A program made the translations under genes and the position numbers. Below the pieces are notes generated by a model that made no database searches, was not told the origin of the DNA, and saw nothing but the letters and a program-made list of their open reading frames with translations. Of a stretch of 64,000 bases of DNA, positions 1 to 61,876 are shown one piece after another (position 1 is the stretch's first letter; every line of letters begins with the position of its first letter). Source of the stretch: Rhizobiales bacterium GAS188 (lineage in GTDB: Bacteria; Pseudomonadota; Alphaproteobacteria; Rhizobiales; Beijerinckiaceae); the NCBI GenBank assembly GCA_900104855.1, contig FNSS01000001.1:2232001-2296000 (forward strand). The letters run 5' to 3'.

Positions 1-1955
1 CACAGGCCCATGTGAGCTACCGGCGCGGCGAGCCGGGCGTCGTCGATTTGTGGCCGGTGGTGGCGGGCGATGAGAACGTCACGGTCGATCCGTTCCGCCG
101 GCCCGAGCTCGGCCCCATTCTGGCCAGCGCCGAGGTGAAGCTCGCGCGCCGCATCGCCGGCGAGATCCAGCGATGGACGGCGCAAGGCTGCGATCTCGGC
201 CGCGCCGTGCAGGCGGGCGACGTGCTGATCCTGGTGCGCCGGCGCGGCAAGATGTTCGAGGCGGTGATCCGGGCCTTGAAACGCGCAGGCGTTCCGGTGG
301 CGGGCGCCGATCGCCTGTCGCTCTCGACCCATATCGCGGTCGAGGATCTCGTCGCCGCCGGGCGCGTCGCGTTGCTGCCCGAGGACGACCTGACCTTGGC
401 GGCTCTGCTCAAATCGCCCTTCATCGGGCTCGACGACGAGGATCTGCTGCGGCTTGCGCCTTCCCGTCCCGGCAGCTTGCGCCAGGCCTTGCGCCAAGCT
501 GCGCTAAATGCCTCGCTTCAAGCAGGGCCCGGCGATGAGCGCCTCGCGGCCGCCGAGGCACGCATCGAGGCTATGCGCCGGACGGCGCGCGAGCATGGCG
601 TCTTCGGCTTCTATGCGCGGCTTCTCGGCCCGGAAGGCGGCCGCAAGGCGCTCGCTTCCCGCCTCGGCGCCGAGGCCGCCGAAGCGAGCGACGAGGTGCT
701 GCGCCTGGCGCTCGCCTATGAGCAAAGCGGGGGAGCCTCGCTTCCCCGCTTCCTCGACGCGCTGCAGACGAGCGGCGCCGATATCAAGCGCGACCTCTCC
801 GCGGCCCGCGGCGAGGTGCGCGTCATGACGGTGCATGGCGCCAAGGGGCTCGAGGCCCCGATCGTCATCCTGGCCGATGCCTGCGCCGCCTCCGACAGGA
901 CCGAGCGCTTCTTGGCGCTGCCGGCAGGCGATGGCAGCGAGATCCCCGTTTGGGTGCCGCGCAAAGAGCTCGACTGCGCCGAGAGTGCTGAGGCTCGCGC
1001 CGCCGAGGCAGCGAACCGGGCTCGCGAGGACCGACGGCTCCTTTACGTGGCCATGACGCGGGCGCGCGACCGGCTGGTCATCGCCGGCTGCCCGGTGCGA
1101 GGCAAGATCCCTGAGGCCTCCTGGTACGCTATGGTTGAGCGGGGGCTCGCCGCAGCACCGCCGCCCGGCCTCGTCGAGCTGGCGGCCCGCCCTGGCGAAG
1201 CCTCGGTCAGGCGCTGGCGGGGGAGCGGCTCGGTCCGAACACTGCCTCCTTCAAGCCCGGCCGGCCGATCACCGCCGGCAGGTGAGCCGGCCTGGCTGCG
1301 TCGCGACGTCGCGCCCGAGCCCGTCGCGAAGCCGCCCTTGCGGCCATCCAGCGCGCTCGACGCCGCCGATGGTGCCGCCTCGCCCGAGTTGCGCTTCGAT
1401 CGTCAGGCCTCGTTCAATCAGCAAGCCTTGCTCGCCGGGCGCTTCGCCCATGCGCTGATCGAGCAGCTGCCGCAAATTCCGCAGGATCGGCGCGCCGCTG
1501 CGGCCGAGATTCTTGCCGGGAAGATTCTTGCCGGGAACCGGGAGGCAGGGCTTGCCGCCGCACGCAAAAGCGAGATCACCGCAAAGGTTCTCGATCTGAT
1601 CTCCGCCCCCGCGACCTTGCCGCTCTTTTCGCCGGACAGCCTCGCGGAAGTGAGCGTCACGGGCGATATCAGGCTTGCGGATGGCAGCTCGCGCGCCGTG
1701 AGCGGCCGGATCGACCGCCTTTCCGTCACCAAGGAAGGGGTGCTGATCGCCGATTTCAAGACGAAACTGCCCGCGAGCGGCACGGCTCGCGACAGGGCGC
1801 TCGTTCAGCTCGCCATCTATCGCGAGCTGGTCCGCGACCTTTATCCCGGCCGGTCGATCGGCTGCGTCCTGATCCTGCTCGACGGTCCCTCCCTGATACG
1901 GCCGGGCGATGCCGAGCTCGACCGGGCCTTGAGGCTCCTGAGCAAGGATGCGTGA
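1..1955 (+). CDS. addA: Double-strand break repair helicase/nuclease AddA, C-terminal part
   Basis: The reading frame is open from the left edge, so the N-terminal helicase half lies outside the window. What remains ends a UvrD-like helicase: motif V (VMTVHGAKGLE, near base 825) and motif VI (LLYVAMTRARDRL, near base 1040). A RecB-type nuclease domain follows, with GRFAHALIEQ, a GRIDRL aspartate, and the DFKTK...QLAIY active-site block near 1750-1820. In AddAB the A subunit translocates on one strand and resects breaks for RecA loading. AddB would be expected just upstream. Residues around 1506-1535 hold a perfect-looking 15-bp tandem duplication (EILAG/KILAG) in the linker before the nuclease. 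The usual trxA does not follow. Confidence 0.95.
   Translation, partial: QAHVSYRRGEPGVVDLWPVVAGDENVTVDPFRRPELGPILASAEVKLARRIAGEIQRWTAQGCDLGRAVQAGDVLILVRRRGKMFEAVIRALKRAGVPVAGADRLSLSTHIAVEDLVAAGRVALLPEDDLTLAALLKSPFIGLDDEDLLRLAPSRPGSLRQALRQAALNASLQAGPGDERLAAAEARIEAMRRTAREHGVFGFYARLLGPEGGRKALASRLGAEAAEASDEVLRLALAYEQSGGASLPRFLDALQTSGADIKRDLSAARGEVRVMTVHGAKGLEAPIVILADACAASDRTERFLALPAGDGSEIPVWVPRKELDCAESAEARAAEAANRAREDRRLLYVAMTRARDRLVIAGCPVRGKIPEASWYAMVERGLAAAPPPGLVELAARPGEASVRRWRGSGSVRTLPPSSPAGRSPPAGEPAWLRRDVAPEPVAKPPLRPSSALDAADGAASPELRFDRQASFNQQALLAGRFAHALIEQLPQIPQDRRAAAAEILAGKILAGNREAGLAAARKSEITAKVLDLISAPATLPLFSPDSLAEVSVTGDIRLADGSSRAVSGRIDRLSVTKEGVLIADFKTKLPASGTARDRALVQLAIYRELVRDLYPGRSIGCVLILLDGPSLIRPGDAELDRALRLLSKDA
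1506..1535 (+). repeat. Two-copy 15-bp in-frame tandem duplication in addA
   Basis: Two adjacent 15-mers (GAGATTCTTGCCGGG and AAGATTCTTGCCGGG) differ at one base and encode EILAG then KILAG. They sit in a variable linker, so the reading frame is preserved. Confidence 0.85.
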
Positions 1956-2054
1956 ACCTCATAGGCTACCTACCCCATCAATTTACCCCGAAATGGGGGG
2001 CTCAGTTCTCGGAATGGCAGCTTGAATCTCGCCGATTTCGCTGCGATCACCCCT

Positions 2055-2083
2055 CTTGATCAGGCTCGCACCAGCTCCCATGT
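2055..2083 (+). promoter_or_regulatory. Possible heat-shock sigma (RpoH-type) promoter for hsp20
   Basis: CTTGAT at 2055-2060 and CTCCCATGT at 2075-2083, about 16 bp apart from the -35 box to CCCATG, resemble the sigma-32 pattern (CTTGAA then CCCCAT) about 85 bp upstream of the small heat-shock gene. This is a visual match only; the downstream gene type is what makes it plausible. Confidence 0.35.
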
Positions 2084-2169
2084 GAATTCTGCGGCATGGA
2101 GCGCCGGGAGTCGGGCTCCGCATCGGATGAGACCAGTGCAGCCGTGATGGGCGCCAGGAGAGGGCTCGG

Positions 2170-2601
2170 ATGATGTCGCGTCAAAATGGCCTGTCTTCGC
2201 CTTTCATGCTTGGGTTCGACGAGATCGAGAGAGCTCTCGACCGGGTCACCAAGGCCACAGGCGATGGCTACCCACCCTATAACATCGAGCGGATCGCGCC
2301 GAGTTCGGACGGACCGGAGAAATTGCGGATCACGCTTGCCGTGGCGGGCTTTGCGCGCAGCGACATCGAAGTGACGATAGAGGACAAGCAGCTTCTCATC
2401 AAAGGCCGCCAAAACGACGATAAACCGCGCCAATTCTTGCATCGGGGGATCGCGTCACGCCAATTCCAGCGGGCTTTTCTGCTGGCGGAGGGGCTCGAAG
2501 TGCTCGGTGCGGACCTCGCCCATGGGTTGTTGTCGATTGATCTCGTACGTCCCGTTCCTGAACGGATCACACGCCGGATCGCCATCGATGAACGCGAATA
2601 G
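2170..2601 (+). CDS. Hsp20/IbpA-type small heat-shock protein
   Basis: A 143-residue alpha-crystallin protein. The core has the expected strands: LRITLAVAGFARSDIEVTIEDKQLLIKGR (about residues 56-85), the hydrophobic swap loop with a FQRAF..AEGLEV segment, and LLSIDLVRPVPE near the C-terminus. Such proteins hold unfolding clients in the cytoplasm for refolding by DnaK/ClpB. An AGGAGAGGG ribosome site precedes the ATG at 2170; a second ATG follows immediately, so the start may be one codon later. The DUF1150 gene 68 bp downstream is its usual alphaproteobacterial partner, and a heat-shock-type promoter may lie upstream. Confidence 0.93.
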   Translation: MMSRQNGLSSPFMLGFDEIERALDRVTKATGDGYPPYNIERIAPSSDGPEKLRITLAVAGFARSDIEVTIEDKQLLIKGRQNDDKPRQFLHRGIASRQFQRAFLLAEGLEVLGADLAHGLLSIDLVRPVPERITRRIAIDERE

Positions 2602-2669
2602 AAGCTCGTGCGACAAACTCTTAACGACAAGGCACGACAATTGCTTGTCTGACTGACGGAGGTTTGGTC

Positions 2670-2930: not shown

Positions 2931-3116
2931 TCCTCGGATCTGTCGCCGGGCTTCGGCCAGGGGGAGTTCGGCAGAACTGGGGCGTCCCATCTCCCGACAG
3001 CCGACCGAGCGGCAGGCGCATGATCCTGAAGGGTGGCTCCCTTCAGGAGGGAAATCATCCAATCTCAAAGAGATAGCGTTCTGCAAGGACCGGGCGCCGA
3101 ACGCCCGGCCGAGCGA

Positions 3117-3782
3117 TCAGCTCACTGTCACCATGCCGGCGGCACCTGCCATCACCACGGCCGAGCCGCGATTGACGGCTCTCATCTTGTGGGTGTCGCC
3201 GATCAGGCGCCCGGCCCGCGCCGCGAGCAGGGCGTAGCCCCACAACGCGGCCGTTATGATCACCACCATGGAGGTGGTGAGCTCCAGGAAGGTCCCTGCC
3301 GTCAAGGCATTGAGATCGACCACATGCGGCAGGATGGCCAGGAAGAACACCATCGTCTTCGGGTTGCCGAGCGTGAGCGAGAGGCCGGCCAAGACCTGCT
3401 TCAACCCCAAGACCTGCTTCAACCCCAAGACCTGTTTCAATCTGACTTGCTTGAGCCCCGCTCCACCCTGGCGCTCGTCTTCCGGAGAAGACTCGACGGG
3501 AGCGGCGGTCCAGAGTTTCCAGGCGATGAACAACAGATAGGCGGCGCCGGCATATTTCACCGCGACGAACAGGCCGTGCAGCATTTGCGCCATGGCGGCG
3601 AGCCCGAAGGCCGCAAAGCAGAACCAGACGAGATCGCCGAGCACCATGCCCCAGATGAAGGGGCCGGTGCGGCGGGCCCCGGTGGTGAGCGCCCGCGTAA
3701 CGACCGCGGCGACGCCGGGGCCCGGAATCATGACGGCGAGCGCATAGACGCCCGCGAAGACCAGAAGCGCAGCAAGGCTCAT
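3117..3782 (-). CDS. LysE/RhtB-family amino-acid exporter
   Basis: A 221-residue inner-membrane protein with about six hydrophobic segments. The opening SLAALLVFAGVYALAVMIPG followed by PG and VVTRAL is the LysE signature, and GNPKTMVFFLAILP is the second conserved block. Members export amino acids or homoserine-type metabolites. The ATG at 3782 is chosen because AACGGAGCG precedes it and the family starts here; an upstream in-frame start would add 33 atypical residues. The cytoplasmic loop before the third segment carries a LKQVLG tandem array (3391-3459), which lengthens the loop without breaking the frame. The substrate cannot be told. Confidence 0.9.
   Translation of the reverse strand: MSLAALLVFAGVYALAVMIPGPGVAAVVTRALTTGARRTGPFIWGMVLGDLVWFCFAAFGLAAMAQMLHGLFVAVKYAGAAYLLFIAWKLWTAAPVESSPEDERQGGAGLKQVRLKQVLGLKQVLGLKQVLAGLSLTLGNPKTMVFFLAILPHVVDLNALTAGTFLELTTSMVVIITAALWGYALLAARAGRLIGDTHKMRAVNRGSAVVMAGAAGMVTVS
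3391..3459 (-). repeat. 18-bp tandem array inside the LysE exporter gene
   Basis: AAGACCTGCTTCAACCCC occurs perfectly at 3391-3408 and 3409-3426. A diverged copy follows at 3427-3444 and a shortened one at 3445-3459. The protein reads as repeated LKQVLG in a hydrophilic loop. Decay of copies in one direction suggests stepwise duplication. Confidence 0.9.
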
Positions 3783-3877
3783 CGATCGCTCCGTTTGGCA
3801 ATGGGCTGCAACTCGCTTCTCCGCGATGCGGGCCGCCATGGCAAGGCGCGTCGAGCTGACGCCGACCGGGATTTGGC

Positions 3878-3903
3878 GCATCAGCTTGACGCATCAACTT
3901 GAC
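3878..3903. repeat. Two-copy 13-bp tandem duplication upstream of tRNA-Val
   Basis: GCATCAGCTTGAC (3878-3890) is followed directly by GCATCAACTTGAC (3891-3903), one mismatch. It lies between the LysE start and the tRNA gene. Confidence 0.8.
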
Positions 3904-3938
3904 GCGTCTTGGCGGCCCTCCTAGAAGGCTCGCCTCAC

Positions 3939-4013
3939 GGGCGCGTAGCTCAGCGGGAGAGCACTCCCTTCACACGGGAGGGGTCACAGGTTCAATCCCT
4001 GTCGCGCCCACCA
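3939..4013 (+). tRNA. tRNA-Val (anticodon CAC)
   Basis: A complete 75-base cloverleaf with encoded CCA. The acceptor stem GGGCGCG (3939-3945) pairs with CGCGCCC (4003-4009). The D stem is GCTC/GAGC and the anticodon stem CTCCC/GGGAG, with loop TTCACAC giving anticodon CAC at 3971-3973. The T stem is ACAGG/CCTGT with loop TTCAATC. It reads GUG valine codons. Confidence 0.97.
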
Positions 4014-4041
4014 TATTTACCAGTACATTTCAATAATTTGC

Positions 4042-10712: not shown

Positions 10713-10915
10713 GCGCAAGCCCGTAGAGCGGGCGCCCTGGCGCCGTCAACAAAATGTCGGGATTCGGACAAAATCGGTACCGCAGTGTTGCATTTAGAAC
10801 ACATGGGGAAGCCTGCCGGGGCGCCGGCGTCGACATCGATGCCCCATATTCGCTGCAGGCTGCCGCAGCGTCGTCATCTCCCGATGCCATGTTGGGTGAG
10901 AGTGAGGAGGTCGAG

Positions 10916-11635
10916 ATGATCGAGGCGGCTGGCAGGGCGATGACCGGAGCCCGAAACTACACGCGGGCAGAGAAACTTGCCGATGGCATCATCCACGTGG
11001 TCGGCCTCGCGCTTGCGGTCGTCGGTGGCGGGGCGCTCATGCTGCTGTCGAGCCGATTCACGAGCTGGCCCACGATCACGACGACGGCGATCTATGCGAC
11101 GAGCCTCGTGGTCGCTCTGGCATGTTCGGCCGCCTACAATATGTGGCCGGCCTCGCGCGTCAAAAACCTGCTGCGACGCTGCGACCAGGCGGCCATCTTT
11201 CTGCTGATCGGCGGAACCTACACGGCGTTCCTGACACGGGCCGTGAACGATCCCCTGGCGCTGTTCGTGCTGGTGGCGGTTTGGACCGTTGCGAGCATCG
11301 GCGCGCTCCTCAAGCTGGTTCTGCCAAACCACCTGGACCGAGTTCACTTGGGTCGAGTTCACTTGGGTCGGGTTCGTCTGGACCGGGTTTCGCTCGTCGC
11401 CTATCTCACTCTCGGCTGGAGTGGCCTCATCCTGCTTCCGAGCGCCATGAAGGCCTTGCCGTCGATGGCGGTGTGCCTGATCGCGTTGGGCGGTCTACTC
11501 TACTCGGCCGGCGTGATATTTCACATGTGGGAACGTCTGCGCTTCCAGAACGCGATCTGGCACGCTTTTGTGCTCGTCGCTGCCGGCTGCCACTATGGGG
11601 CGGTCCTCGACTGCCTGATCCTGACGCGATCATGA
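10916..11635 (+). CDS. Hemolysin III / PAQR-like seven-helix membrane protein
   Basis: A 239-residue protein of the YqfA/HlyIII family. EKLADGIIHVVGLALAVVG carries the conserved Ser/His-type first helix. CSAAYNMW and RRCDQAAIFLLIGGTYTAF are signature blocks, and the last helix ends IWHAFVLVAAGCHY. The two late histidines are the metal-ligand type known from PAQR receptors. I chose the ATG at 10916 because GAGGAGG sits five bases before it; upstream in-frame starts have no such site. A four-copy 15-bp array (11330-11389) lies in the loop between helices four and five. Confidence 0.88.
   Translation: MIEAAGRAMTGARNYTRAEKLADGIIHVVGLALAVVGGGALMLLSSRFTSWPTITTTAIYATSLVVALACSAAYNMWPASRVKNLLRRCDQAAIFLLIGGTYTAFLTRAVNDPLALFVLVAVWTVASIGALLKLVLPNHLDRVHLGRVHLGRVRLDRVSLVAYLTLGWSGLILLPSAMKALPSMAVCLIALGGLLYSAGVIFHMWERLRFQNAIWHAFVLVAAGCHYGAVLDCLILTRS
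11330..11389 (+). repeat. Four-copy 15-bp in-frame tandem array in the hemolysin III gene
   Basis: Units at 11330-11344, 11345-11359, 11360-11374 and 11375-11389 encode HLDRV, HLGRV, HLGRV and RLDRV. The middle copies differ by one base; the outer copies have drifted at three to five positions. The array sits in a hydrophilic loop. Confidence 0.92.
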
Positions 11636-11671
11636 GCTTCGTCAGCTCCCCGCTTCATGTCTCCGCTCCAT

Positions 11672-11697
11672 TCCTCTGCTTCACTCCTCTGCTTCTT
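11672..11697. repeat. Two-copy 13-bp intergenic tandem duplication
   Basis: TCCTCTGCTTCAC is followed at once by TCCTCTGCTTCTT, in the gap between the hemolysin III gene and the next minus-strand gene. Confidence 0.75.
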
Positions 11698-13010: not shown

Positions 13011-13077
13011 ATTTTGGATCAGTGAAGAACTTGGATCAGTGAAGAACCTGAATCGATGAAGACCTTGGATCGCCGCA
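13011..13077 (+). repeat. 17-bp tandem array running into the dsrE-like start codon
   Basis: Units at 13011-13027, 13028-13044 and 13045-13061, plus a partial fourth, share the pattern TTGGATCAGTGAAGA. The third unit supplies the ATGAAG start of the next gene, and the fourth encodes its residues TLDR. The second copy carries GTGAAGAA, which may act as the ribosome site. Confidence 0.85.
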
Positions 13078-13520: not shown

Positions 13521-13530
13521 GGGCGTCGTT

Positions 13531-13616
13531 GGGACCGCGACCGTCTCGGTCGCCCTTCCTGCGAGCGGCGCAACAGCCTTACCGTTCCAAAGAGCGGGCG
13601 AGATGCCCGCGGTCCC
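13531..13616. repeat. Inverted REP doublet between convergent genes
   Basis: GGGACCGCG-led hairpins occur at 13531-13553 on plus (GCGACCG-TCT-CGGTCGC) and at 13594-13616 on minus (GCGGGC-ATCTC-GCCCGC). The two copies differ mainly inside the stems, with changes on both arms that keep pairing. The doublet sits between the convergent dsrE-like and recJ genes. Confidence 0.65.
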
Positions 13617-24907: not shown

Positions 24908-25233
24908 AGTGTCGGTCCTCCCAAGAGTTGATCAAAGGAGAAGTCACTGGCGAGCGAGAAGTCACTGGCGAATGATCCCGGTCGCGCGGCGGACCCTATC
25001 TTATTGTGCAGGAGATCGGGGCGCCAGTTCGCGAATCGGCGCCAGATTTGAAACGGCCGGCAATCGAGAGCCGAATGTTCGGCCGCCTTCGGCCCGGAGC
25101 CCGCCACGGCCTTCTTCCACGGTCAGCACCTCACCGGAAGGCGCCCTGAGGGAGCCGACCCCGCTCACCGGCGCCCCGCCCGCTCGGCGGCTGTCGGCAA
25201 GGGGCCATTGCGAAGACGCAGCCGGGTCGGTCG
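24908..25233. other. 326-bp gene-free region with an 18-bp tandem duplication
   Basis: GAGAAGTCACTGGCGAGC (24938-24955) is followed by the near-identical 24956-24973, in the promoter region of the solute-binding gene. The remainder, up to the stop of the signal-peptidase homologue, is GC-rich with short imperfect hairpins. I see no convincing gene or terminator. Confidence 0.6.
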
Positions 25234-35986: not shown

Positions 35987-36028
35987 GATGCGCTCAAATC
36001 GAAGCGAGATGCATTCAGATCGAACCGC
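35987..36028. repeat. Two-copy 21-bp intergenic tandem duplication
   Basis: The 21-mers at 35987-36007 and 36008-36028 both begin GATGC and contain a TCAAATCGAA or TCAGATCGAA core, with about five differences. They lie in the promoter region of the gamma-glutamylcyclotransferase-like gene. Confidence 0.7.
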
Positions 36029-36146
36029 GATGGAGCAAGCCGCTGGCGAGCACCGCCCGGCTCGGAACCGTCGCCGGGCAGAGCGTCAAGTTACCGGACA
36101 AAACACGTCGACATGGGTCGATGCCCCAGGCAAACGCGCACATACC

Positions 36147-36953: not shown

Positions 36954-39026
<2,073 letters not shown>

Positions 39027-39117
39027 GGCGAACCCCTTAGCGCGCAATTGGTTTTTTGCGTTTAGGGGAGGTTTTGCCGCGCGTCCACCCGGAAAGGGGC
39101 GTAGGCGCGGCTCGCCG

Positions 39118-41164: not shown

Positions 41165-41877
41165 AGGCGAAGACAACATCCCTTGACCACCTCGCGCACG
41201 CAGCCAAGACTTTGCGCGCAAACAAGACTTTGCGCGCAAATAAGTCGGGCTGCGTGCCCCATTGGCGGCGCGACAGCCGTGAGACGATCGCCTCGAAATC
41301 CCCATTGGCTGCCCGCAACGGGCGGTTCGCGAGGCGCGGCATCGGTGTCGCTGTCCTGCTCGCCGGGCTGAGCCCGGTTTTGCAGCCGGCACCGACCGCG
41401 CAAGCGCAACTCACCGAATTCTGCCAATTCACCGGCAATCCGGGCCCTTGCGGGCCTTACGACCAATATCAGGACGCGATCGGCCAGGATTTGCGCATGA
41501 CATTGGTGCTGCGCCCTCATGGCCAAACCGCGACCGTACCGCCTGCCGCGGCGAGGCCAGGCCCCCTCCCGGTGAAGCTCGACAGCATTCGCGACGTGTT
41601 CGCCGCCTTGCGCAGCTGTTTCGAGGGTGGGCTCGCGGGCAACAGCGCGCAGGAACAGTCCGCGACAATCCGCTTCAGTTTCGGACGCGACGGGGCTATT
41701 TTCGGCGAGCCTCGTTTCACCTATATCGAGCCTCGCATGCCGGCCGAGGCGGCGCGGGCTTTCGAAGGCTCCATCCGCCGCACGCTCGGCTCCTGCGTGC
41801 CCTTCCCCTTCACCAAGGGTCTCGGCGGAGCGCTGGCGGGCCGTCCCTTCATCATCCGCATCGTCAAACAGGCTTAA
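41161..41877 (+). CDS. Exported protein with a TonB-C-like domain
   Basis: A 238-residue protein. The GTG at 41161 overlaps the cyclophilin stop (GTGA). A hydrophobic export segment (RGIGVAVLLAGLSPVLQ, ending AQAQ) lies unusually deep, at about 58-82, behind a basic stretch that carries KTLRANKTLRANKS from an 18-bp duplication. The mature C-terminal part (FAALRSCFEG, ATIRFSFGRDGAIFGEPRFT, PFIIRIVKQA) resembles TonB C-terminal-like domains in fold pattern. The true start might be later. No function can be given. Confidence 0.6.
   Translation: MKAKTTSLDHLAHAAKTLRANKTLRANKSGCVPHWRRDSRETIASKSPLAARNGRFARRGIGVAVLLAGLSPVLQPAPTAQAQLTEFCQFTGNPGPCGPYDQYQDAIGQDLRMTLVLRPHGQTATVPPAAARPGPLPVKLDSIRDVFAALRSCFEGGLAGNSAQEQSATIRFSFGRDGAIFGEPRFTYIEPRMPAEAARAFEGSIRRTLGSCVPFPFTKGLGGALAGRPFIIRIVKQA
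41206..41241 (+). repeat. Two-copy 18-bp in-frame tandem duplication
   Basis: AAGACTTTGCGCGCAAAC (41206-41223) is followed by the same 18-mer with one final change (41224-41241). It encodes KTLRAN twice near the N-terminus of the exported protein. Confidence 0.92.
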
Positions 41878-48967: not shown

Positions 48968-48984
48968 GGGCGCCGGCGCTAAAC

Positions 48985-50538
48985 TCAATCGGTCAGCATG
49001 CGCTTGAGCAGCACGACCTCATCCTTGAGGGCTGGGTTCTCGCCGATCAGGCCTTCGATCTTGCGCACCGCGTGCAGCACCGTGGTGTGGTCGCGGCCGC
49101 CGAAGCGTCGCCCGATCTCGGGCAATGAGCGCAAGGTCAGCGTCTTCGACAGATACATGGCGATCTGGCGCGGGCGCACCACGCTCGCGGTGCGGCGCGA
49201 CGACAGGAGGTCGGCGCGCGTCACGTTGAAATGCGCCGAGACGAGCTTGAGGATCTCCTCGACCCGGACCCGTTTCGGCTCGCGCGCCCGGATCAGGTCG
49301 CGGATGGCGGTCTCGGCCGAATCGAGCGTCACATGCGCGCCAGCGAAGCTCGCATGGGCGAGCAACCGGTTCACCGCGCCGTCGAGGTCGCGGCCATTGC
49401 TGGTGATCACCGAGGCGACGAAGTCGATGACCGTGTCCGGCACCTTGAAGGACGGGTCGCGCTCGCGCGCCGCCGCGATGCGGCGCTCGAGGATGCGGCG
49501 GCGCAGATCCTCGTCGAAGGCTGCGATCTCGACGCACAGCCCGCCCGCGAGCCGCGACTTGATGCGTTCGTCGAGACCCTCGAGCTCGCCCGGCGGACGA
49601 TCGGCCGCGACCACCATCTGCCGGCGCGAATCGGCGAGCTGGTTGATGATGTGGCAGAACTCCTGCTGCACCGTCTTGCCTTGCAGGAACTGCACGTCGT
49701 CGACGATCAGGAGATCGATATTGCGCATCTGATCCTTGAACTGGATCGCGGTCTGCGAGCGCAGCGCCGACACGAATTGATGCATGAAGCGATCGGCCGT
49801 CAGATAGAGGGCGCGCTTGCCCTCGGACTCGCAGGCATGCGCCATGGCTTGCGACAGATGCGTCTTTCCAAGACCGACCGCCGCATGGATGTAGAGCGGG
49901 TTGTAGACGGCCTGGCCACCGATCGTCTCGGCCACCTTGCGGGCGGCAGCGCAAGCAAATTGGTTGGAGCGGCCGACCACGAAATTGTCGAAGGTCAGCT
50001 GGCGATCGAGCGCCGCGGCGATCGACAGCGGCATCGGGACCTCCTGCTTCTTGTCTTGCCGATTGTCTTGCCGGGGCGTGCCATCCGATGGGGAGCGCGG
50101 ATCGATGCGCAGATAGGGAGCCGCGATCTCGCACGGCGCCTTGCCGTCGCCGACCCGCCCCTGAATACGTGTGGTCTGGGCACGCGGCGGCATGGCGCCG
50201 CGCACGCTCACCTCGACGCTGACGGCGTTGCAGTCGATCGCGAAATGCTTGCGCAGCCGGTCGGCGTAATGGGTGTCGATCCAGCTCTTGAGGAAGCGCG
50301 TCGGCACGCTCAACTGGGCGATGCCGCCTTCGATGCCCGCGAGCTCGAGCGAACCGAACCAGCTCGCCACCACATCCTCGCCGAGCTCGGCGCGCAGCTT
50401 GCGCCGCACCCTCTCCCACAGCTCTCCGAGCGCGGGCCCGCCAGGCACAGCTCTTGCGACCACGCCAGTTTCGTCGGTGACGATCGAGGCTCGGTTGAGC
50501 AATTCGCCGCTTTGGGTCTGGGGGGTGTTTTCGAACAT
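48985..50538 (-). CDS. dnaA: Chromosomal replication initiator DnaA
   Basis: A 517-residue initiator. Domain I is LGELWERVRRKLRAELGEDV, followed by a linker. The AAA+ core has VGLGKTHLSQAMAH (Walker A), NIDLLIVDDVQFLQGKTVQQ (Walker B), and domain IV ends with GGRDHTTVLHAVRKIEGLIG, the DnaA signature. The ATG at 50538 (MFENTPQTQSG) is preferred over a start 62 codons upstream that would lie in the leader. A 12-bp duplication (50051-50074) places RQDNRQDK in the linker. Confidence 0.97.
   Translation of the reverse strand: MFENTPQTQSGELLNRASIVTDETGVVARAVPGGPALGELWERVRRKLRAELGEDVVASWFGSLELAGIEGGIAQLSVPTRFLKSWIDTHYADRLRKHFAIDCNAVSVEVSVRGAMPPRAQTTRIQGRVGDGKAPCEIAAPYLRIDPRSPSDGTPRQDNRQDKKQEVPMPLSIAAALDRQLTFDNFVVGRSNQFACAAARKVAETIGGQAVYNPLYIHAAVGLGKTHLSQAMAHACESEGKRALYLTADRFMHQFVSALRSQTAIQFKDQMRNIDLLIVDDVQFLQGKTVQQEFCHIINQLADSRRQMVVAADRPPGELEGLDERIKSRLAGGLCVEIAAFDEDLRRRILERRIAAARERDPSFKVPDTVIDFVASVITSNGRDLDGAVNRLLAHASFAGAHVTLDSAETAIRDLIRAREPKRVRVEEILKLVSAHFNVTRADLLSSRRTASVVRPRQIAMYLSKTLTLRSLPEIGRRFGGRDHTTVLHAVRKIEGLIGENPALKDEVVLLKRMLTD
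50051..50074 (-). repeat. Two-copy 12-bp in-frame tandem duplication in dnaA
   Basis: TTGTCTTGCCGA and TTGTCTTGCCGG are adjacent and encode RQDN/RQDK-type residues in the variable linker before the AAA+ core. Confidence 0.85.
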
Positions 50539-50990
50539 TGCGCTCAAGGCCGCTGGTAATGGGCTGCAGACATGCGTTCCCGTTGCCCGGCCCGCACAAG
50601 GCGGCAGCGGACGACGAACGCGGTGAAAATAAATGCGTCGGAAGGCGAGTAGCGAAGCTAGGCGAGGCTTACCTGATTGCGCGAACTCACGGCGTACTCG
50701 GGAGCAAGAAATAATGGACAGCATTGGAGTCGAGGCATGAGGGCCGTGATCCCAATTGATCGCTTGTCGTCATTGCCCACTCCAGGTCGCGAGTGCTTCT
50801 CATGTTTCTCGCTGAGCGACAGCGCCTGCCGCCGCCCGCCCGTCTCGCTGGGATCACGTAAGCATCTCGACGGGCGCCCCGCAATCGACTCAATTCGACA
50901 TGGCCTCGTGATTCGTGTCGCTGCATCGAGCGGGCGATCAATCACGGGTCCCCAAACCGTTGCGCTTGATCATTTTTTCGGTATCAAGCC

Positions 50991-50999
50991 TGTGGATAT
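50991..50999 (-). promoter_or_regulatory. DnaA box, one mismatch
   Basis: TGTGGATAT is the complement of ATATCCACA, one base from the TTATCCACA consensus. It lies 13 bp from the CtrA box. Confidence 0.5.
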
Positions 51000-51012
51000 T
51001 TAGGGGACGACA

Positions 51013-51028
51013 TTAATCGAAAATTAAC
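51013..51028 (+). promoter_or_regulatory. CtrA binding box
   Basis: TTAATCGAAAATTAAC fits the alphaproteobacterial CtrA consensus TTAA-N7-TTAAC exactly. CtrA represses initiation and controls cell-cycle promoters in this class, so its place between dnaA and rpsT is meaningful. Confidence 0.75.
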
Positions 51029-51261
51029 GGCCGGACCGAACCGGAATCGAGCGGCGAGGGCAGCTTGCCGCGGAGTGTCCGAGCCCTTGGCGAGCAAGCT
51101 CATGACTCAACTCAAATTTCCGTGATCAAATAGCCGGCACATGATATTGATGCGGCTGTTCGGCTGATTCAGGGGTGTCAGATTTGCGACAGAATGAGGC
51201 GAGACCAGGGCACGCGCAAAATCGCGACGCCGGACGCCTTGGCGCGCAACGCAATCTAAAT

Positions 51262-51579: not shown

Positions 51580-51752
51580 CGGAGTTCCTTAGAGGGACGC
51601 ATCCCTTCATCGAGAGGCTGCGTCTTCAATTGACGATGCGGTGAGGCAAAAGCCGCGACTGGCGCAAAGCTTCGCCGGAGGCGGGCTTATAATGTGCGAC
51701 CGGGGCAGCGTCAATGACAAGAAGAGGGATGAAACAAGAAGGGCGCGCCGTC

Positions 51753-52322
51753 TTACCGCTCCCCTTGCGGCAGGGTCCCCGCCAGGCGCTGCAGGCTCTC
51801 GATCGGAAAGGTGAAGCACATTTTGTGCTGCACGACGCCGCCGAGCGCGGCATAAAGACGCTGCGCCCCGCTATTGCTGACCGGCGTCGTGAGATCGATG
51901 CGCCCGAGGCCTTGCTCGATGGCGAAGCCGGCGAGGAAGCGCATCAGCTTCGTGCCGATGCCGTGACCCTGCGCCTCCTGGCACACGAAGACGTCCTTGA
52001 CGAAGACGAGCCCTTTCAGGTCGCGCCCGGGGCGCAGCACGCCGATGCAGGCGACGCCCAGAGGCTCGCCCGCCGCAAGGCACAGGACGAAGCGGGTTCC
52101 CTCCTTCGCCTCGAGGGTGCGGGTGACGCTCGCCGTGTATTCGGCGGCCGGCGGCAAGGCGTCGCCCGGGCGATAATGAGTATCCATGGCCCGCAGCAGC
52201 GTCGCGACCGCGGACGCGTCCGCGGCCTCGGCGAAGCGGATCTCGGGTTCGGGCATCTTGCCAGGGATCACTTGTTCAGGGATCGATTGTTCAGGGATCA
52301 TTTGCGCGGCAAGCTCGCTCAT
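51753..52322 (-). CDS. GNAT-family N-acetyltransferase
   Basis: A 189-residue acetyltransferase. IRFAEAADASAVATLLRAMD opens the fold, VFVKDVFVCQEAQGHGIGTK contains the QGHGIG acetyl-CoA loop, and NSGAQRLYAALGGV ends it. The N-terminal 22 residues include IPEQSIPEQVIPG, made by a three-copy 15-bp array, and precede the domain proper. GGAGGATG lies about ten bases before the ATG. The substrate is unknown. Confidence 0.88.
   Translation of the reverse strand: MSELAAQMIPEQSIPEQVIPGKMPEPEIRFAEAADASAVATLLRAMDTHYRPGDALPPAAEYTASVTRTLEAKEGTRFVLCLAAGEPLGVACIGVLRPGRDLKGLVFVKDVFVCQEAQGHGIGTKLMRFLAGFAIEQGLGRIDLTTPVSNSGAQRLYAALGGVVQHKMCFTFPIESLQRLAGTLPQGER
52262..52306 (-). repeat. Three-copy 15-bp tandem array at the GNAT N-terminus
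   Basis: CAGGGATCACTTGTT, CAGGGATCGATTGTT and CAGGGATCATTTGCG lie end to end. On the minus strand they encode repeating IPEQ-type units outside the catalytic fold. Confidence 0.92.
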
Positions 52323-52446
52323 GGGTCATCATCCTCCGACCGTGATTCACATCGGCCGGCATGGCGACGCGGTGTGACGCGCCGGCAAACAAGCCGGCCT
52401 TCGGTCTTGCGTCAAGAGAAAGGGTCTTGCGTCTGGAGGACTTGCT

Positions 52447-56201: not shown

Positions 56202-57035
56202 ATGATCAGAACCGCACGACCTGTCGGCGACCATCTGCGCGAATGGCGCCAGCGCCGCCGCTTGAGCCAGCTCGACCTCGCCTTGGAGGCGGAGATCTCG
56301 ACGCGCCATCTGAGCTTTCTCGAGACCGGGCGCTCGACCCCGTCACGCGAGATGGTCCTGCACCTCGCCGAGCAGCTCGACATCCCGTTGCGCGAGCGCA
56401 ATGTGCTGCTCAATGCGGCGGGCTACGCGCCGGTCTTCCTCGAACGGCCGATCAGCGATCCGGCGCTGCAGGCTGCCTATCAGGCCGTCGACCTCGTGCT
56501 GAAGGGCCATGAGCCCTATCCGGCGCTCGCCGTCGACCGGCATTGGAACTCGGTCGCGACCAACAGCGCCGTCGCGCCGTTGATGGCAGGTGCCGACCCT
56601 GCCTTGTTGCAGGGGCAAATCAATGTGCTGCGGCTCAGCCTGCATCCCAAAGGCATCGCGTCACGGATCGCCAACCTGCCCGAATGGCGCGCCCATCTCC
56701 TGGCACGGCTGCGCCGCCAGATCGAGCTGACCGCGGACCCTGACCTCGCCGAGCTGATGCAGGAATTGTTGGATTATCCGGTCCCGCACGAGGATCGTGC
56801 CGCCAAGCGCGAACCCGACGGCGAGCATGGCAGCGTCGTGGTGCCGTTCCAGCTCATCACCGAGAACGGCATCCTTTCCTTCTTCTCCACCACCACCGTG
56901 TTCGGCACGCCCGTCGACATCACCCTGTCAGAGCTCGCACTCGAATGCTTCTATCCGACCGATCAGGCGACCACGGAGGCGCTGCTGCGCCTGGGCGAGG
57001 AGCGCAGGCGAGAGTCCTCAGGCTCGGCCCCTTAG
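56202..57035 (+). CDS. XRE-family regulator with MmyB-like ligand domain
   Basis: A 277-residue regulator. The helix-turn-helix is LREWRQRRRLSQLDLALEAE then ISTRHLSFLETGRSTPSREM. The C-terminal MmyB-like, PAS-type domain includes YPALAVDRHWNSVATNSAVA. In this family the second domain binds fatty-acid-like ligands. It is divergent from the SnoaL-membrane protein operon, the probable target. Its stop overlaps the convergent PaaI-type gene by four bases. Confidence 0.9.
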   Translation: MIRTARPVGDHLREWRQRRRLSQLDLALEAEISTRHLSFLETGRSTPSREMVLHLAEQLDIPLRERNVLLNAAGYAPVFLERPISDPALQAAYQAVDLVLKGHEPYPALAVDRHWNSVATNSAVAPLMAGADPALLQGQINVLRLSLHPKGIASRIANLPEWRAHLLARLRRQIELTADPDLAELMQELLDYPVPHEDRAAKREPDGEHGSVVVPFQLITENGILSFFSTTTVFGTPVDITLSELALECFYPTDQATTEALLRLGEERRRESSGSAP

Positions 57036-57514
57036 AACAGGGCGACCGTGACCAGGGCCTTGGCGACGAGGCCCGTCTCCGCGAGGACCGAGACATCGAC
57101 GACCGCCTGGCGACGCCCGCGGCGCAGCACCACGGCCTCGGCTCGCAGCGCCACGGCCTCGGCGGGCGCGAGGTAGCTGATGGAAAGCTGGCTCGTGGCG
57201 CTGCCGCGCAAGCCCTCGACGGTTGCGCCTGATAGCGCCGCCGCCACACCTGCGATATCGATCACCGCGGCGATGACCCCGCCATGCACGATATCGCCGA
57301 CCGTCACATTCTCCGGCTTGAAGGGCAGGACCGCCACGGCGCGGTCGACCGCAAGCGTTTCCAAGACGACACCGAACGCCCGCGCCACCGGAGATCCGAA
57401 CAGGACGAGGCGGATGCGCTCGGCAAGCCTCGTATCAACAAGCCTCGCATCCACGCCCTTTTCGTCCCCAGCGCGCGTCGCGCCGCTCTCTTCGCCACCC
57501 GCCGCTGCACCCAT
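57032..57514 (-). CDS. PaaI-type hot-dog thioesterase
   Basis: A 160-residue hot-dog protein. VLPFKPENVTVGDIVHGGVI then AAVIDIAGVAAAL carries the HGG active-site loop of PaaI thioesterases, and SISYLAPAEAVALRAEAVVL the back strand. It hydrolyses acyl- or aryl-CoA. GAGGAG precedes the ATG at 57514. The N-terminus includes DARLVDTRLAE from a two-copy 15-bp duplication (57424-57453), ahead of the fold. Confidence 0.85.
   Translation of the reverse strand: MGAAAGGEESGATRAGDEKGVDARLVDTRLAERIRLVLFGSPVARAFGVVLETLAVDRAVAVLPFKPENVTVGDIVHGGVIAAVIDIAGVAAALSGATVEGLRGSATSQLSISYLAPAEAVALRAEAVVLRRGRRQAVVDVSVLAETGLVAKALVTVALF
57424..57453 (-). repeat. Two-copy 15-bp in-frame tandem duplication in the PaaI-type gene
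   Basis: CAAGCCTCGTATCAA is followed directly by CAAGCCTCGCATCCA, three differences. On the minus strand they encode DARLV and DTRLA. Confidence 0.85.
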
Positions 57515-57813
57515 CACCCACTCCTCACGGCTTCTTGATCTTACGCTCTTTCGACCCGATCGGGTCACGACTGCTCGCCGGCGCAACGCGCAAATACGAG
57601 CGGAAATGCCACTCTTGGCTCACGGCGGCGCCGACGCAATGACCTTCGACGTCATGGCGCGCAAGCAGGCGCCTCCGGCCAGCGAGGCGACCAGAGCGCA
57701 GAGGCGCAAAGCGCTCACGCGAATGTGCTCGCTCAAGCCCCGCGGGGCGCTCGCCTCGCAACGGCCGCAAATGCTTATTTGGCGCCGACGCAGCTCATTC
57801 CGGGGGGTCTCCC

Positions 57814-58452: not shown

Positions 58453-58458
58453 TCACGA

Positions 58459-58630: not shown

Positions 58631-58662
58631 AGAGCGGGGTCCGCTGGGGGCCGCGCTCTTTT
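58631..58662 (+). terminator. Attenuator-like terminator before rimP-nusA
   Basis: AGAGCG-G-GGTCC (58631-58642) pairs with GGGCC-G-CGCTCT (58648-58659), eleven pairs with one internal G/G mismatch, followed by TTTT at 58659-58662. It lies only 18 bp before the rimP ATG, in the leader of the nusA operon and not behind any plus-strand gene, so read-through control is likely. Confidence 0.55.
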
Positions 58663-58680
58663 CGTTTGATCGGACGTTGG

Positions 58681-59367
58681 ATGGAGCAAGAAGGCGATAT
58701 CGCCGAGCCGCGCCTCGTCGCGGAAACAGGGCTTGCGGCGCGCGTTGCGGCCATGGTGGAGCCGTCGCTCATGGCGGCGGGCTTTCGTTTGGTGCGCGTC
58801 AAGGTGTCGGGCGAGGCCGGCTGCACGGTGCAGATCATGGCCGAGAAGCCGGACGGCTCGATGAGCGTCGAGGATTGCGAAGCGGTCAGCCGTCTCGTCT
58901 CGCCGCTTCTCGATGTCGAGGACCCGATCGGGCGTCCCTATCGCCTGGAGATTTCCTCGCCAGGCATCGATCGGCCGCTGATGCGCCGCTCGGATTTCGC
59001 CCGCTGGGCGGGCCACCAGGCCAAGGTCGAGCTCACTTTGCTGGTCGCCGGCCGCAAGCGCTTCAACGGCGTGCTGCTCGGCGTCGAAGGCGAGGAGACG
59101 CTGTTGCGCCGCCTCGATGCCCGCGAAGGCGAGGAGACCGAGGTGCGGCTGCCGCTCGCCGATATCGGCGAGGCGCGGCTCGTGCTGACCGACGATCTGA
59201 TCAGGGAATCGCTGCGCCGCGGCAAGCGCGCCGCGCGCCAGGGTCTTGAAGACGAGGCCGATACACTGCCCGATGCCGACCTCACGCCGGCGCAGCCCCA
59301 TGCGACGCAGCCCCGTGCGAAGCCGAACGGGCATGCGCCTCAGAGGCGCTACTCGAAACACCGATAG
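58681..59367 (+). CDS. rimP: Ribosome maturation factor RimP
   Basis: A 228-residue protein. [20 protein letters not shown] then LVRVKVSG opens the KH-like N-domain. [20 protein letters not shown] then [11 protein letters not shown] is the signature, and an Sm-like domain follows ([20 protein letters not shown]). RimP assists 30S assembly. The tail is extended, and a 15-bp duplication at 59292-59321 contributes [12 protein letters not shown]. It heads the rimP-nusA-ylxR-infB operon. Confidence 0.95.
59292..59321 (+). repeat. Two-copy 15-bp in-frame tandem duplication in rimP
   Basis: GCAGCCCCATGCGAC and GCAGCCCCGTGCGAA are adjacent and encode [10 protein letters not shown]-type residues in the C-terminal tail. 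Confidence 0.85.
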
Positions 59368-59400
59368 ATCATCCGATATTAATCCCGGAGTGAATGAACC

Positions 59401-61002
59401 ATGGCCGTCAGTGCAAACAGGCTGGAGCTTCTGCAGATCGCCGATGCCGTGGCGCGCGAGAAGCTCATCGACCGCCAGATCGTCATCTCGGCGATGGAGG
59501 AATCGATCGCCAAGGCGGCGCGCTCGCGCTACGGGCTCGAAACCGACATCCATGCCGAGATCAACCCGAAGACCGGTGAATTGCGCATCGCCCGCCACCT
59601 TCTGGTCGCCGACGCGATCGACAATCCATCGACCCAGATCAGCATCGAGGATGCGCGCAAGCGCAACCCCGCGGCCCAGGCCGGCGATTACATCTCCGAG
59701 CCGTTGCCGCCCTTCGAATTCGGCCGCGTGGCGGCGCAATCGGCAAAGCAGGTCATCGTGCAGAAGGTGCGCGAGGCCGAGCGCGACCGCCAATATGACG
59801 AGTTCAAGGACCGCATCGGCCAGATCGTCAACGGCACGGTCAAGCGCGTCGAATATGGCAATGTGATCGTCGATCTGGGGCGCGGCGAGGCCATCGTGCG
59901 GCGCGACGAATTGATTCCGCGCGAGACCTTCAAGCCCGGCGACCGCATCCGCGCCTATGTGCTCGATGTGCGGCGCGAGCAGCGCGGACCGCAGATCTTC
60001 CTGTCGCGCACCCATCCGCTGTTCATGGCCAAGCTGTTCGGCCAGGAAGTGCCCGAGATCTATGACGGCATCATCGAGGTGAAGGCGGTGGCGCGCGATC
60101 CGGGCTCACGCGCCAAGATCGCCGTCATTTCGCGCGATTCCTCGATCGATCCCGTTGGCGCCTGCGTCGGCATGCGCGGCTCGCGCGTCCAGGCCGTGGT
60201 CGGCGAGCTGCAAGGCGAGAAGATCGACATCATCCCCTGGTCGCCGGACGTCGCGACCTTCGTGGTCAACGCCTTGCAGCCGGCCGAGGTCGCCAAGGTG
60301 GTGCTCGACGAGGAGAGCGACAAGATCGAGGTCGTGGTGCCCGACGAGCAGCTCTCGCTCGCCATCGGCCGGCGCGGCCAGAATGTGCGCCTCGCCTCGC
60401 AACTGACCGGGTGGGACATCGATATCCTGACCGAGGACGAGGAATCGGAGCGGCGCAAGCAGGAATTCGAGCATCGCTCGACCTTGTTCATCAACGCCCT
60501 CAACGTCGACGAGACGGTTGGCCAATTGCTGGCATCGGAAGGTTTCCGTTCGGTCGAGGAGCTCGCCCATGTGGATCAGTCCGAGATCGCCGGGATCGAG
60601 GGCTTCGACGAGGAGACCGCCGAGGAGTTGCAGAACCGGGCCCGCAACTACCTCGCCACGATCGAGGCCGAGCACGACGCCAAGCGCAAGGAGCTCGGCG
60701 TCGAGGACACGCTCTTGACCATCAACGGCGTGACCATGGCGATGCTGGTCAAGTTCGGCGAGCACGACGTCAAGACGATCGAGGATCTGGCCGGTTGCGC
60801 CACCGACGATTTGACCGGCTGGACCGAGCGCAAGGACGGGCAGACGACGCGCCATCCGGGCGCGCTCGACGGTTTCGAGGTCTCGCGCGAGGAGGCCGAG
60901 GCCATGATCATGGCGGCCCGCGTCGCGGTCGGCTGGATCGAGGCGCCGGCGCCGGCCGAGGGGGCTGGCGAGGCCGAAGCGGAGACCGGCGCGGCGCATT
61001 GA
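59401..61002 (+). CDS. nusA: Transcription termination/antitermination factor NusA
   Basis: A 533-residue factor. The N-terminal domain is [20 protein letters not shown] then [13 protein letters not shown]1 is [22 protein letters not shown]1 holds [20 protein letters not shown] and KH2 [20 protein letters not shown]. Two C-terminal helix-hairpin-helix repeats follow ([40 protein letters not shown]). NusA binds RNA polymerase and modulates pausing. GGAGTGA precedes the ATG. Confidence 0.97.
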
Positions 61003-61038
61003 GCGCCACGCGGATGACGAGGATGGGCAGGTACCGGC

Positions 61039-61809
61039 ATGGCGCAAGATGCGCTTGATCGAGAGCCGAGTGGCGTCGCGACAGCGCCCGTCGCGGCGAT
61101 CGACGACGCGCTCGCCGCTGCGCCGGCCCTAGAGGCCGGCCGCAGCCGCAAGGCGCAAGAGCGAAGCTGCATCGTCACAAGGCTGGCGCAAGCGCCGGAG
61201 AAGCTCATCCGCTTCGTGGTGTCGCCGGAGGGCGTCGTCACGCCCGATATCAGGCGCGCTTTGCCGGGCCGCGGTGTCTGGGTGACGGCGAGCCGGGCCC
61301 GGATCGCGGAGGCCGTCAAGCGCAAGGCCTTTGCGCGGGCCTTCCGCAAGGAGGTCGCGGCGCCGGTGGAGCTTGCCGATACGGTCGGCGTCCTGCTGCG
61401 CAAGGACGCGCTGCAGGGGCTTTCGCTCGCCAACAAGGCAGGTGCCGTCATCGCCGGCTTCGAGAAAGTGCGCTCGGCGCTTGCCGCCGGCGAGGTCTTG
61501 GCCCTCATCGAGGCGAGCGACGGCTCGCTCGAGGGACGCAGGAAGCTCGTCGGCGCCTCGCGACCCGATGCCGGAGCGGACCTTGCCGATGCGGCCGGCG
61601 CTGCGCCTGTCCTCATCGATTGTTTCGCTTCGAGCGAGCTGGATTTGGCACTTGGGCGTCCCCATGTGATACATGCAGCATTGCTCAAGGTGCCGGCGAG
61701 CGGCTTCGCCTTGACGAAGTGTCTGCGCTTTCACCGTTTTGAATTGACCGAAAAACACGCTAGTGGAGGCGCCGAGCGTCGCGCCGCCGCCCAAGAGGAT
61801 ACCCGTTAA
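61039..61809 (+). CDS. YlxR (DUF448) and L7Ae-like RNA-binding protein
   Basis: A 256-residue protein. The first domain is YlxR/DUF448 ([20 protein letters not shown], then [10 protein letters not shown] and [12 protein letters not shown]). The second (about 105-215) is L7Ae-like (LGLANKAG-type segment [20 protein letters not shown], ending [15 protein letters not shown]). This fusion between nusA and infB is normal in alphaproteobacteria, and it probably binds RNA in the translation/transcription machinery. Confidence 0.92.
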
Positions 61810-61814
61810 GCCGG

Positions 61815-61876
61815 GATACCGGTTGAACCGGACCGCCCGTTGAACCAGAACACCCTTTGACCGCCATTTGAACCGT
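61815..61876 (+). repeat. Diverged TTGAACC tandem array before infB
   Basis: Between the ylxR-like stop and infB, the sequence reads GGTTGAACCGGAC, CGTTGAACCAGAA, CCTTTGACCGCC, ATTTGAACCG, at a period of about 16-18 bp. It looks like an older member of the tandem-duplication class seen elsewhere in the window. Confidence 0.6.

What the first reader, a model, noticed from the sequence alone, without database searches (positions are those of the whole stretch)
1506..61876. Recurrent short tandem duplications (12-21 bp) across the whole window
At least fourteen places carry adjacent near-identical copies: 1506 (15 bp), 3391 (18), 3878 (13), 11330 (15 x4), 11672 (13), 13011 (17 x3), 24938 (18), 35987 (21), 37435 (15), 41206 (18), 50051 (12), 52262 (15 x3), 57424 (15) and 59292 (15), with looser cases near 52404 and 61815. 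Inside genes the unit is always a multiple of three and lies in a loop, linker or terminus. The sequences are unrelated from site to site, so this is not one mobile element. Fresh copies differ by 0-2 bases and older ones decay. This density in ordinary chromosomal DNA, including dnaA and rimP, suggests a lineage-specific duplication process such as replication slippage, a repair defect, or an error-prone polymerase copying short stretches twice. I know of no named system that explains it.
Basis: partly seen in the sequence, partly recalled or inferred. Interest (0 to 1): 0.75.

Follow-up and report, generated by a model that had tools for sequence, protein, structure and literature searches.

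The report
Chromosome-wide short tandem DNA duplications
The chromosome of this bacterium is sprinkled with tiny side-by-side copies of its own DNA, 12 to 21 letters long, several times more than in relatives and with a shared sequence preference; this resembles a known laboratory mutator and could show how new tandem repeats are born in nature.

Summary
All 14 listed duplications are present; shuffled sequence gives almost none (17 in the window against 0-2 in each of 20 shuffles). The excess extends over the sampled chromosome: 75 arrays in 1,024 kb, against 6 in 206 kb of three congeners, 14 in 1,120 kb of twelve other genomes and 0 in 400 kb of more distant DNA. The two smaller contigs have 1 in 200 kb. 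Unit length is tightly bounded: 46 exact duplications of 12-21 bp, one of 27, none of 28-300. Two sites are shown to be gains, single-copy in relatives. The units share a preference: CCAAG/CTTGG occurs in 19 of 74 units against 3.2 expected, first of 512 five-mers. Junction microhomology is slight, though above chance. The closest known process is the E. coli topA R168C mutator, which makes repeat-independent tandem duplications of 2-19 bp (PMC6954433). I favour a nick-based, perhaps topoisomerase I-linked, duplication process followed by slippage and decay. A cleavage-rule test (C at -4) gave p = 0.02 but did not replicate, and this genome's topA was never read.

The parts
1506..1537 (+). 15-bp tandem duplication in a UvrD_C/PDDEXK nuclease gene (ORF 12-1955); single copy in G001, G002 and G003
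3389..3440 (-). 18-bp unit, 2.9 copies, in a LysE-type ORF (3117-3881); contains CCAAG
3873..3905 (.). 13-bp tandem duplication between the LysE-type ORF (may touch its start) and tRNA-Val (3939-4013)
11330..11389 (+). 15-bp unit, four copies of differing decay, in a HlyIII-family ORF (10754-11635); contains CTTGG
11669..11695 (.). 13-bp tandem duplication, outside my predicted genes
13011..13071 (.). 17-bp unit, 3.4 copies; start of a predicted ORF at 13056 overlaps its end (uncertain)
24935..24973 (.). 18-bp tandem duplication (16/18), outside my predicted genes
35987..36032 (.). 21-bp duplication, older (16/21), outside my predicted genes
37435..37464 (-). 15-bp duplication, older (12/15), in ORF 36954-39047
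41205..41244 (.). 18-bp exact duplication, outside my predicted genes; unit found elsewhere in the genome only with 3 mismatches; no tandem repeat at the corresponding place in L072 (G003)
50050..50074 (-). 12-bp duplication in dnaA; two copies in the paralogue at C1:4.44 Mb, one copy in the C3 paralogue and in G001-G003
52262..52306 (-). 15-bp unit, three copies, near the N terminus of a GNAT-family ORF (51753-52322)
57122..57163 (-).
57424..57453 (-). 15-bp duplication in the thioesterase-family ORF 57032-57586; G003 has a different 12-bp duplication at the same place, G001 and G002 none exactly there
59291..59320 (+). 15-bp duplication near the C terminus of rimP (ORF 58666-59367)
61797..61860 (.). 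decayed 17-bp array; not present in the three congeners

Best explanation
The chromosome of this lineage (Hyphomicrobiales) undergoes a process that copies 12-21 bp of unrepeated sequence head to tail at scattered sites. Inferred mechanism: a strand-breaking event prone to CTTG/CAAG-containing sites, most plausibly an unusual topoisomerase I (type IA) cleavage or religation activity, leaves two single-strand breaks, or one break plus limited 3' extension, 12-21 nt apart. The intervening stretch is copied and the ends rejoined, giving a duplication that needs almost no pre-existing repeat. Established duplications then grow by ordinary slippage to three or more copies and decay by point mutation; in-frame or intergenic ones survive selection. 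Shown: the excess, the length limit, the motif bias, the direction of change at two sites, the weak microhomology and the contrast between C1 and the smaller contigs. Inferred: breaks as the cause, topoisomerase I as the agent, the later slippage and the role of selection.
For: Density: 75 arrays in 1,024 kb of contig C1 (76 in 1,224 kb in all) against 14 in 1,120 kb of twelve other genomes (p = 1.3e-10 for the whole own sample) and 0 in 400 kb of E. coli, AM1 megaplasmid and pSymB. Length limit: 46 exact cases of 12-21 bp, one of 27, none of 28-300; with up to 8% mismatch one each at 27, 30, 32 and 34. Gains: dnaA repeat single in the C3 paralogue and three congeners; 1506 repeat single in three congeners; G003 has its own 12-bp duplication at the 57424 site. 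Motif: CCAAG in 19 of 74 units against 3.2 expected with length-, GC- and class-matched windows, first of 512 five-mers, enriched only within about 20-40 bp of the arrays; CAAG in 37 of 76 own units against 1 of 14 in the other genomes (p = 0.003). Slight microhomology: 22 of 37 exact arrays have 0-4 nt overlap, 11 of them 0-1 nt. Known precedent: E. coli topA R168C makes tandem duplications of 2-19 bp independent of existing repeats, at hotspots (PMC6954433; part of results and the discussion read). E. coli topoisomerase I needs C four bases before the cut, a rule its authors think likely for the family (PMC9352719, passages); at the ends of 22 clean exact duplications C is commonest at -4 of all positions examined (0.46; 0.56 in the 8 unambiguous ones), and same-strand C(-4) at both ends is possible in 14 of 22 against 9.0 in about 400 simulations (p = 0.022).
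Against: The C(-4) signal did not replicate in 24 duplications with one mismatch (outer 0.35, inner 0.28) nor clearly in 11 exact ones from relatives, and I had looked at some cases by eye before counting. E. coli topoisomerase I cuts at TA in AT-rich sequence, which CTTGG does not resemble. The topA paper found no cleavage motif at its hotspots. By eye, CTTG/CAAG sits at no fixed distance from the ends. Mean microhomology, 1.5 nt, exceeds the null of 0.80 (p = 0.003), so slippage is not excluded.
Confidence: 0.33

Rival explanations
1. Classical replication slippage: the nascent strand misaligns at very short direct repeats (1-4 nt) 12-21 nt apart, at a raised rate because of a polymerase or repair difference in this lineage.
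For: Overlap at clean junctions averages 1.5 nt against 0.80 expected (p = 0.003), and 15 of 37 exact arrays have about 2.35 or more copies, as expected of later slippage.
Against: 8 of 22 clean junctions have no overlap and 11 of 22 at most one base. The upper limit near 21 bp is sharp and the CCAAG preference is not explained by slippage. RecJ, ExoVII-L and a PolA exonuclease domain with its conserved acidic residues are present. Polymerases and mismatch repair were not examined.
Confidence: 0.3
2. Ku/LigD end joining: two nearby nicks on opposite strands leave 5' overhangs of 12-21 nt that are filled in and joined, duplicating the overhang, as reported for plants.
For: Ku is present in the window's genome (1 match) and in the three congeners (3-4 matches each). 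Slight microhomology fits. The plant precedent is cited in PMC6954433.
Against: The window's genome has fewer Ku matches than its congeners, which have fewer duplications. Among sampled other genomes, five with Ku hold 8 arrays in 500 kb and four without hold 3 in 400 kb, too few to separate. No motif is expected. LigD was not searched.
Confidence: 0.2
3. Loss of a second flap nuclease: congeners have an extra stand-alone 5'-3' exonuclease that the window's genome lacks; uncut 5' flaps are ligated and leave duplications.
For: PF02739 finds one gene (PolA) in G000, but an extra gene of about 300 aa in G001 and G002 and a partial one in G003. That loss of the flap nuclease causes duplications in yeast rad27 mutants is recalled, not from a call.
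Against: PolA's exonuclease domain keeps the acidic residues shared by all eight aligned proteins (that these are the catalytic ones is recalled). Relatives with a single PF02739 match (G008, G011, G012) hold 0, 2 and 4 arrays per 100 kb. CAAG orientation showed no clear replichore bias, but the replichores are poorly defined.
Confidence: 0.1
4. The repeats are kept by selection as binding sites or peptide repeats, not made by an unusual mutation process.
For: Shared motif; density 15.1 outside against 2.9 per 100 kb inside predicted genes; by eye, a few arrays in L093 and L097 look like low-complexity peptide repeats.
Against: The motif bias is found inside and outside predicted genes and in both orientations; unit sequences differ from site to site; about half the arrays are exact (39 of 76).
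Confidence: 0.05
5. Assembly artefact.
For: None found; reads were not available.
Against: Copies diverge gradually, units inside genes are multiples of three in 24 of 26 cases, and separately assembled congeners carry the same kind of repeat.
Confidence: 0.02

Closest known systems
E. coli topA R168C mutator (Bachar et al. 2019, PMC6954433)
   Same: De novo head-to-tail duplications, short (2-19 bp there, 12-21 bp here), with little need of existing repeats.
   Different: A laboratory allele; no common motif was found there, whereas CCAAG/CTTGG is strong here. Duplications under 12 bp could not be told from chance here. The topA gene of this genome was not read.
[quoted passage not shown] cited in PMC6954433, original not read)
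   Same: Duplication without need of direct repeats; length set by nick spacing.
   Different: Eukaryotic; no sequence motif known to me; bacterial Ku is present here but was not linked to density.
Minisatellites and slippage-driven variable repeats of bacteria (recalled)
   Same: Tandem units of this size, copy-number growth and decay.
   Different: Here hundreds of mostly unrelated loci are inferred across one chromosome, with a shared short motif and a sharp length limit.
Heptameric short tandemly repeated sequences (recalled from cyanobacteria)
   Same: The same genome also has 7-bp arrays.
   Different: Those were filtered out and treated as a separate class.

Membership tests
topA-type duplication mutator | Tandem duplications independent of existing sequence repeats | tested here: inconclusive
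   8 of 22 clean junctions have no overlap and 11 of 22 at most 1 nt, but the mean exceeds the null
topA-type duplication mutator | Length range up to about 19 bp | tested here: met
   46 exact duplications of 12-21 bp, one of 27, none of 28-300; lengths under 12 cannot be told from chance
topA-type duplication mutator | Hotspots | tested here: inconclusive
   G003 has its own duplication at the 57424 site; other recurrences are weak
topA-type duplication mutator | Altered conserved residue in topoisomerase I | not tested
topA-type duplication mutator | Ends obey the rule of C at -4 (not a feature of the published mutator; expected if the enzyme cuts there) | tested here: inconclusive
   p = 0.022 in 22 exact cases, not replicated in 24 one-mismatch cases
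Slippage at direct repeats | Direct repeats at the ends of the duplicated stretch in the precursor | tested here: inconclusive
   Mean overlap 1.5 against 0.80 nt; the two polarised cases have 0-1 nt
Ku/LigD fill-in | Dependence on Ku | not testable with these tools
   Presence only; density of sampled genomes with and without Ku not separable
Mobile or dispersed repeat family | Units related to each other or dispersed in the genome | tested here: not met
   One unit (41205) searched in the whole genome: elsewhere only with 3 mismatches; pairs among 74 units barely exceed controls

The most novel reading that the evidence does not exclude
A natural bacterial lineage lives with a sequence-directed duplication mutator: a topoisomerase I or other nicking enzyme with a CTTG preference writes 12-21 bp tandem copies into the chromosome but hardly into the smaller contigs, making hundreds of new repeat loci and steadily lengthening proteins and intergenic DNA.
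Probability: 0.2. Interest if true: 0.8.

Novelty: new variant of a known kind. Interest (0 to 1): 0.55.

Why it matters
How tandem repeats form from non-repeating sequence is called unknown in the discussion of PMC6954433. A natural lineage with an estimated 600 cases on one chromosome (75 per 1,024 kb scaled to 8.2 Mb; inference), about half of them exact, with a motif and a length limit, turns that into a question that sequence comparison and mutation-accumulation lines can answer. It also shows a route by which proteins gain 4-7 residues without frameshift.

Tried and rejected
Dispersed repeat or mobile origin: the 41205 unit, the only one searched genome-wide, occurs elsewhere only with three mismatches; pairwise unit similarity barely exceeds controls. 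Hairpin-driven duplication: units with a 4-bp stem 8 against 6.4 expected. Motif as an over-represented word of the genome: CCAAG is at its Markov expectation. Okazaki or primase origin: CAAG/CTTG 12/16 in samples up to 4.1 Mb and 6/4 beyond (counted by hand), no clear bias; but GC skew is flat between about 1.3 and 4.0 Mb, so the test is weak. Fixed motif distance from the ends: not seen by eye. Common-consensus search: weak motif only. Loss of RecJ or ExoVII-L: both present. Degenerate PolA exonuclease domain: acidic residues conserved. Target-site duplications of insertion elements: long-range 14-24-mers were listed, output partly cut, no clear pattern by eye. CCAAGN10CCAAG across 248 family genomes: 201 in the window's genome (22 per Mb) against 5-8 per Mb in the three congeners, but some other genera reach over 20 per Mb, probably because AAG is a common codon, so it is not used as evidence. 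Rfam on four repeat-rich loci: one tRNA only. A protein search for the 11330 gene in congeners found nothing and that for the 3391 gene only matches of 27-38% identity. Dropped before counting: four contigs of G030 under 1.6 kb, heptamer arrays, and the 37 of 74 arrays with a mismatch. Papers: ten searches, of which 51, 55 and 83 found none; no paper on a natural lineage with this pattern appeared in the rows listed.
Full report
WHAT WAS CHECKED. The window is G000:C1:2232001-2296000 of a 9.09-Mb genome in three contigs. All 14 listed repeats are present. At period 12-21 and identity >=86% the window has 17, twenty dinucleotide shuffles have 0-2 each. Exact duplications of 10-30 bp number 6 against a mean of 0.4.

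HOW FAR IT EXTENDS. I sampled 1,224 kb of the genome: the window, 20-kb stretches spread over C1, C2 and C3, stretches around the other dnaA copies and three stretches beside the window and a repeat-rich stretch, so not all random. Congener samples were the dnaA contigs plus low-numbered contigs. Counting arrays of 13-21 bp with >=92% identity, heptamer arrays removed: window 9 in 64 kb; rest of C1 66 in 960 kb; C2 and C3 together 1 in 200 kb; congeners 6 in 206 kb (G002 4, G001 1, G003 1); eleven other genomes of the family and one of the order 14 in 1,120 kb; E. coli K-12, AM1 megaplasmid and pSymB 0 in 400 kb. Own against the other genomes p = 1.3e-10; own against congeners p = 0.039; congeners against the other genomes p = 0.078; C2+C3 against C1 p = 3.3e-5. 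The window is richer than the rest of C1 (p = 0.044), but it was picked for its repeats.

SHAPE OF THE PROCESS. Exact duplications have periods 12 (7), 13 (2), 14 (2), 15 (21), 16 (1), 17 (6), 18 (5), 21 (2) and 27 (1); none from 28 to 300; periods of 7 or less and multiples of a shorter unit were filtered out. With up to 8% mismatch there is one each at 27, 30, 32 and 34 (looked at up to 60). Longer ones would be easier to see, so the limit is real. In the sample 48 of 74 arrays lie outside my predicted genes, at 15.1 per 100 kb against 2.9 inside; the predictor is crude and calls only 74% coding, so some of these are probably coding. Of the 26 arrays well inside predicted genes, 24 have periods divisible by three. 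39 of 76 arrays are exact.

DIRECTION OF CHANGE. The dnaA repeat (50051) is double in the window and in the paralogue at C1:4.44 Mb, but single in the C3 paralogue and in G001, G002 and G003. The 1506 repeat is single in G001-G003. None of the congeners covering them shows the window's repeat at 41205 (one contig), 57424, 59291 or 61797 (three contigs each), though the 41205, 59291 and 61797 regions align poorly. At 57424, G003 has a different 12-bp duplication (11/12) of the same spot, and G002 has a 15-bp one some tens of bases away, beyond the aligned stretch; at the 61797 site G001 has a weak 12-bp one (10/12). The process may therefore be shared by the genus but has left more repeats here.

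A SHARED MOTIF. Units are not relatives of one another: best 12-base matches between units barely exceed controls. But they prefer CCAAG/CTTGG: 19 of 74 units against 3.2 expected from windows matched for length, GC and gene class; CAAG in 36 against about 12; the reversed word 3 against 2.4. Over all 512 five-mers CCAAG ranks first with z = 8.6, the next is 4.8. It holds outside (12 of 48) and inside (7 of 26) predicted genes. CCAAG density is 9.1 per kb within 20 bp outside the arrays, 3.7 at 21-40 bp and near the genome level (2.5) beyond. In the other genomes 1 of 14 units has CAAG, in own 37 of 76, in congeners 3 of 6, all in G002.

JUNCTIONS. Of 37 exact arrays, 15 have overlaps of 6 nt or more, that is partial or whole further copies. 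The other 22 have overlaps 0 (8), 1 (3), 2 (5), 3 (4) and 4 (2); mean 1.5, null 0.80, p = 0.003. So microhomology is slight but above chance, and slippage remains possible.

CANDIDATE AGENTS. Ku: one match in G000, three or four in congeners. Stand-alone 5'-3' exonuclease: no match in G000, present in G001 and G002, partial in G003. PolA's exonuclease domain keeps its acidic residues. RecJ, itself inside the window (13627-15426), and ExoVII-L are present. None of these correlates cleanly with density. The best precedent is the E. coli topA R168C mutator: its galK insertions were entirely de novo tandem duplications of 2-19 bp; tandem duplications there are independent of existing repeats and fall in hotspots; no cleavage motif was found (PMC6954433; outline, part 1 of 5 of the text, part 1 of 2 of the results and the discussion read). 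E. coli topoisomerase I requires C four bases before the cut, thought likely for the whole family, and cuts at TA in AT-rich DNA (PMC9352719, passages); the first point fits, the second does not. In 22 clean exact duplications C is commonest at -4 of the positions examined, and same-strand C at both ends is possible in 14 of 22 against 9.0 (p = 0.022). I had looked at some cases by eye before the count. In 24 one-mismatch duplications the signal is absent, and in 11 from relatives it is not clear. I treat it as inconclusive. The topA gene of this genome was not reached. From memory only, mycobacterial topoisomerase I prefers sites containing CTT/G, which would fit CTTG; no call supports this.

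VERDICT. I put a nick-based, possibly topoisomerase-linked, duplication process slightly ahead of plain slippage.

Noticed in passing
window 48984-51127; G000:C1:4442676-4444403; G000:C3:95661-97310: dnaA occurs three times in this genome (99% and 96% protein identity to the window copy); only about 2.1 kb is duplicated. Congeners have one apparent gene (G003 in two overlapping contig pieces). The window copy is the one in the gene order shared with congeners.
   Followed up: partly
window about 13530-13616; about 50 further matches in G000: A 70-90 bp interspersed element with terminal inverted repeats (CTGGGACCGC...GCGGTCCCAG) and internal hairpins, sometimes in pairs about 90 bp apart; no match in the three congeners in the same search.
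   Followed up: partly
L169 12373-12540, L178 1012-1090, L180 4562-4660: Heptamer arrays such as CTCACTC and AATAGTG, a separate class from the 12-21 bp duplications.
   Followed up: no
G000 whole genome: The genome is 9.09 Mb against 4.7-4.9 Mb in its three congeners at completeness 92-100%; the 0.97% contamination estimate does not suggest general doubling.
   Followed up: no
G000:C2 and C3: The two smaller contigs carry almost no such duplications (1 in 200 kb sampled) although 45% of their sampled sequence is outside my predicted genes.
   Followed up: partly
G001:C39:4702-5610; G002:C123: Congeners have a stand-alone 5'-3' exonuclease of about 300 aa with no match in the window's genome.
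   Followed up: partly
L097 3150-3240 and window 11330-11389: Two 15-bp arrays can be read as similar pentapeptides (VYLGG-like and RVHLG); L097 was translated by eye and this may be chance.
   Followed up: no
window 51716-52443: Between rpsT-side and the next shared gene the window has a GNAT-family ORF and several repeats in about 730 bp, where congeners have about 80-230 bp; the name rpsT is recalled, not from a call.
   Followed up: no
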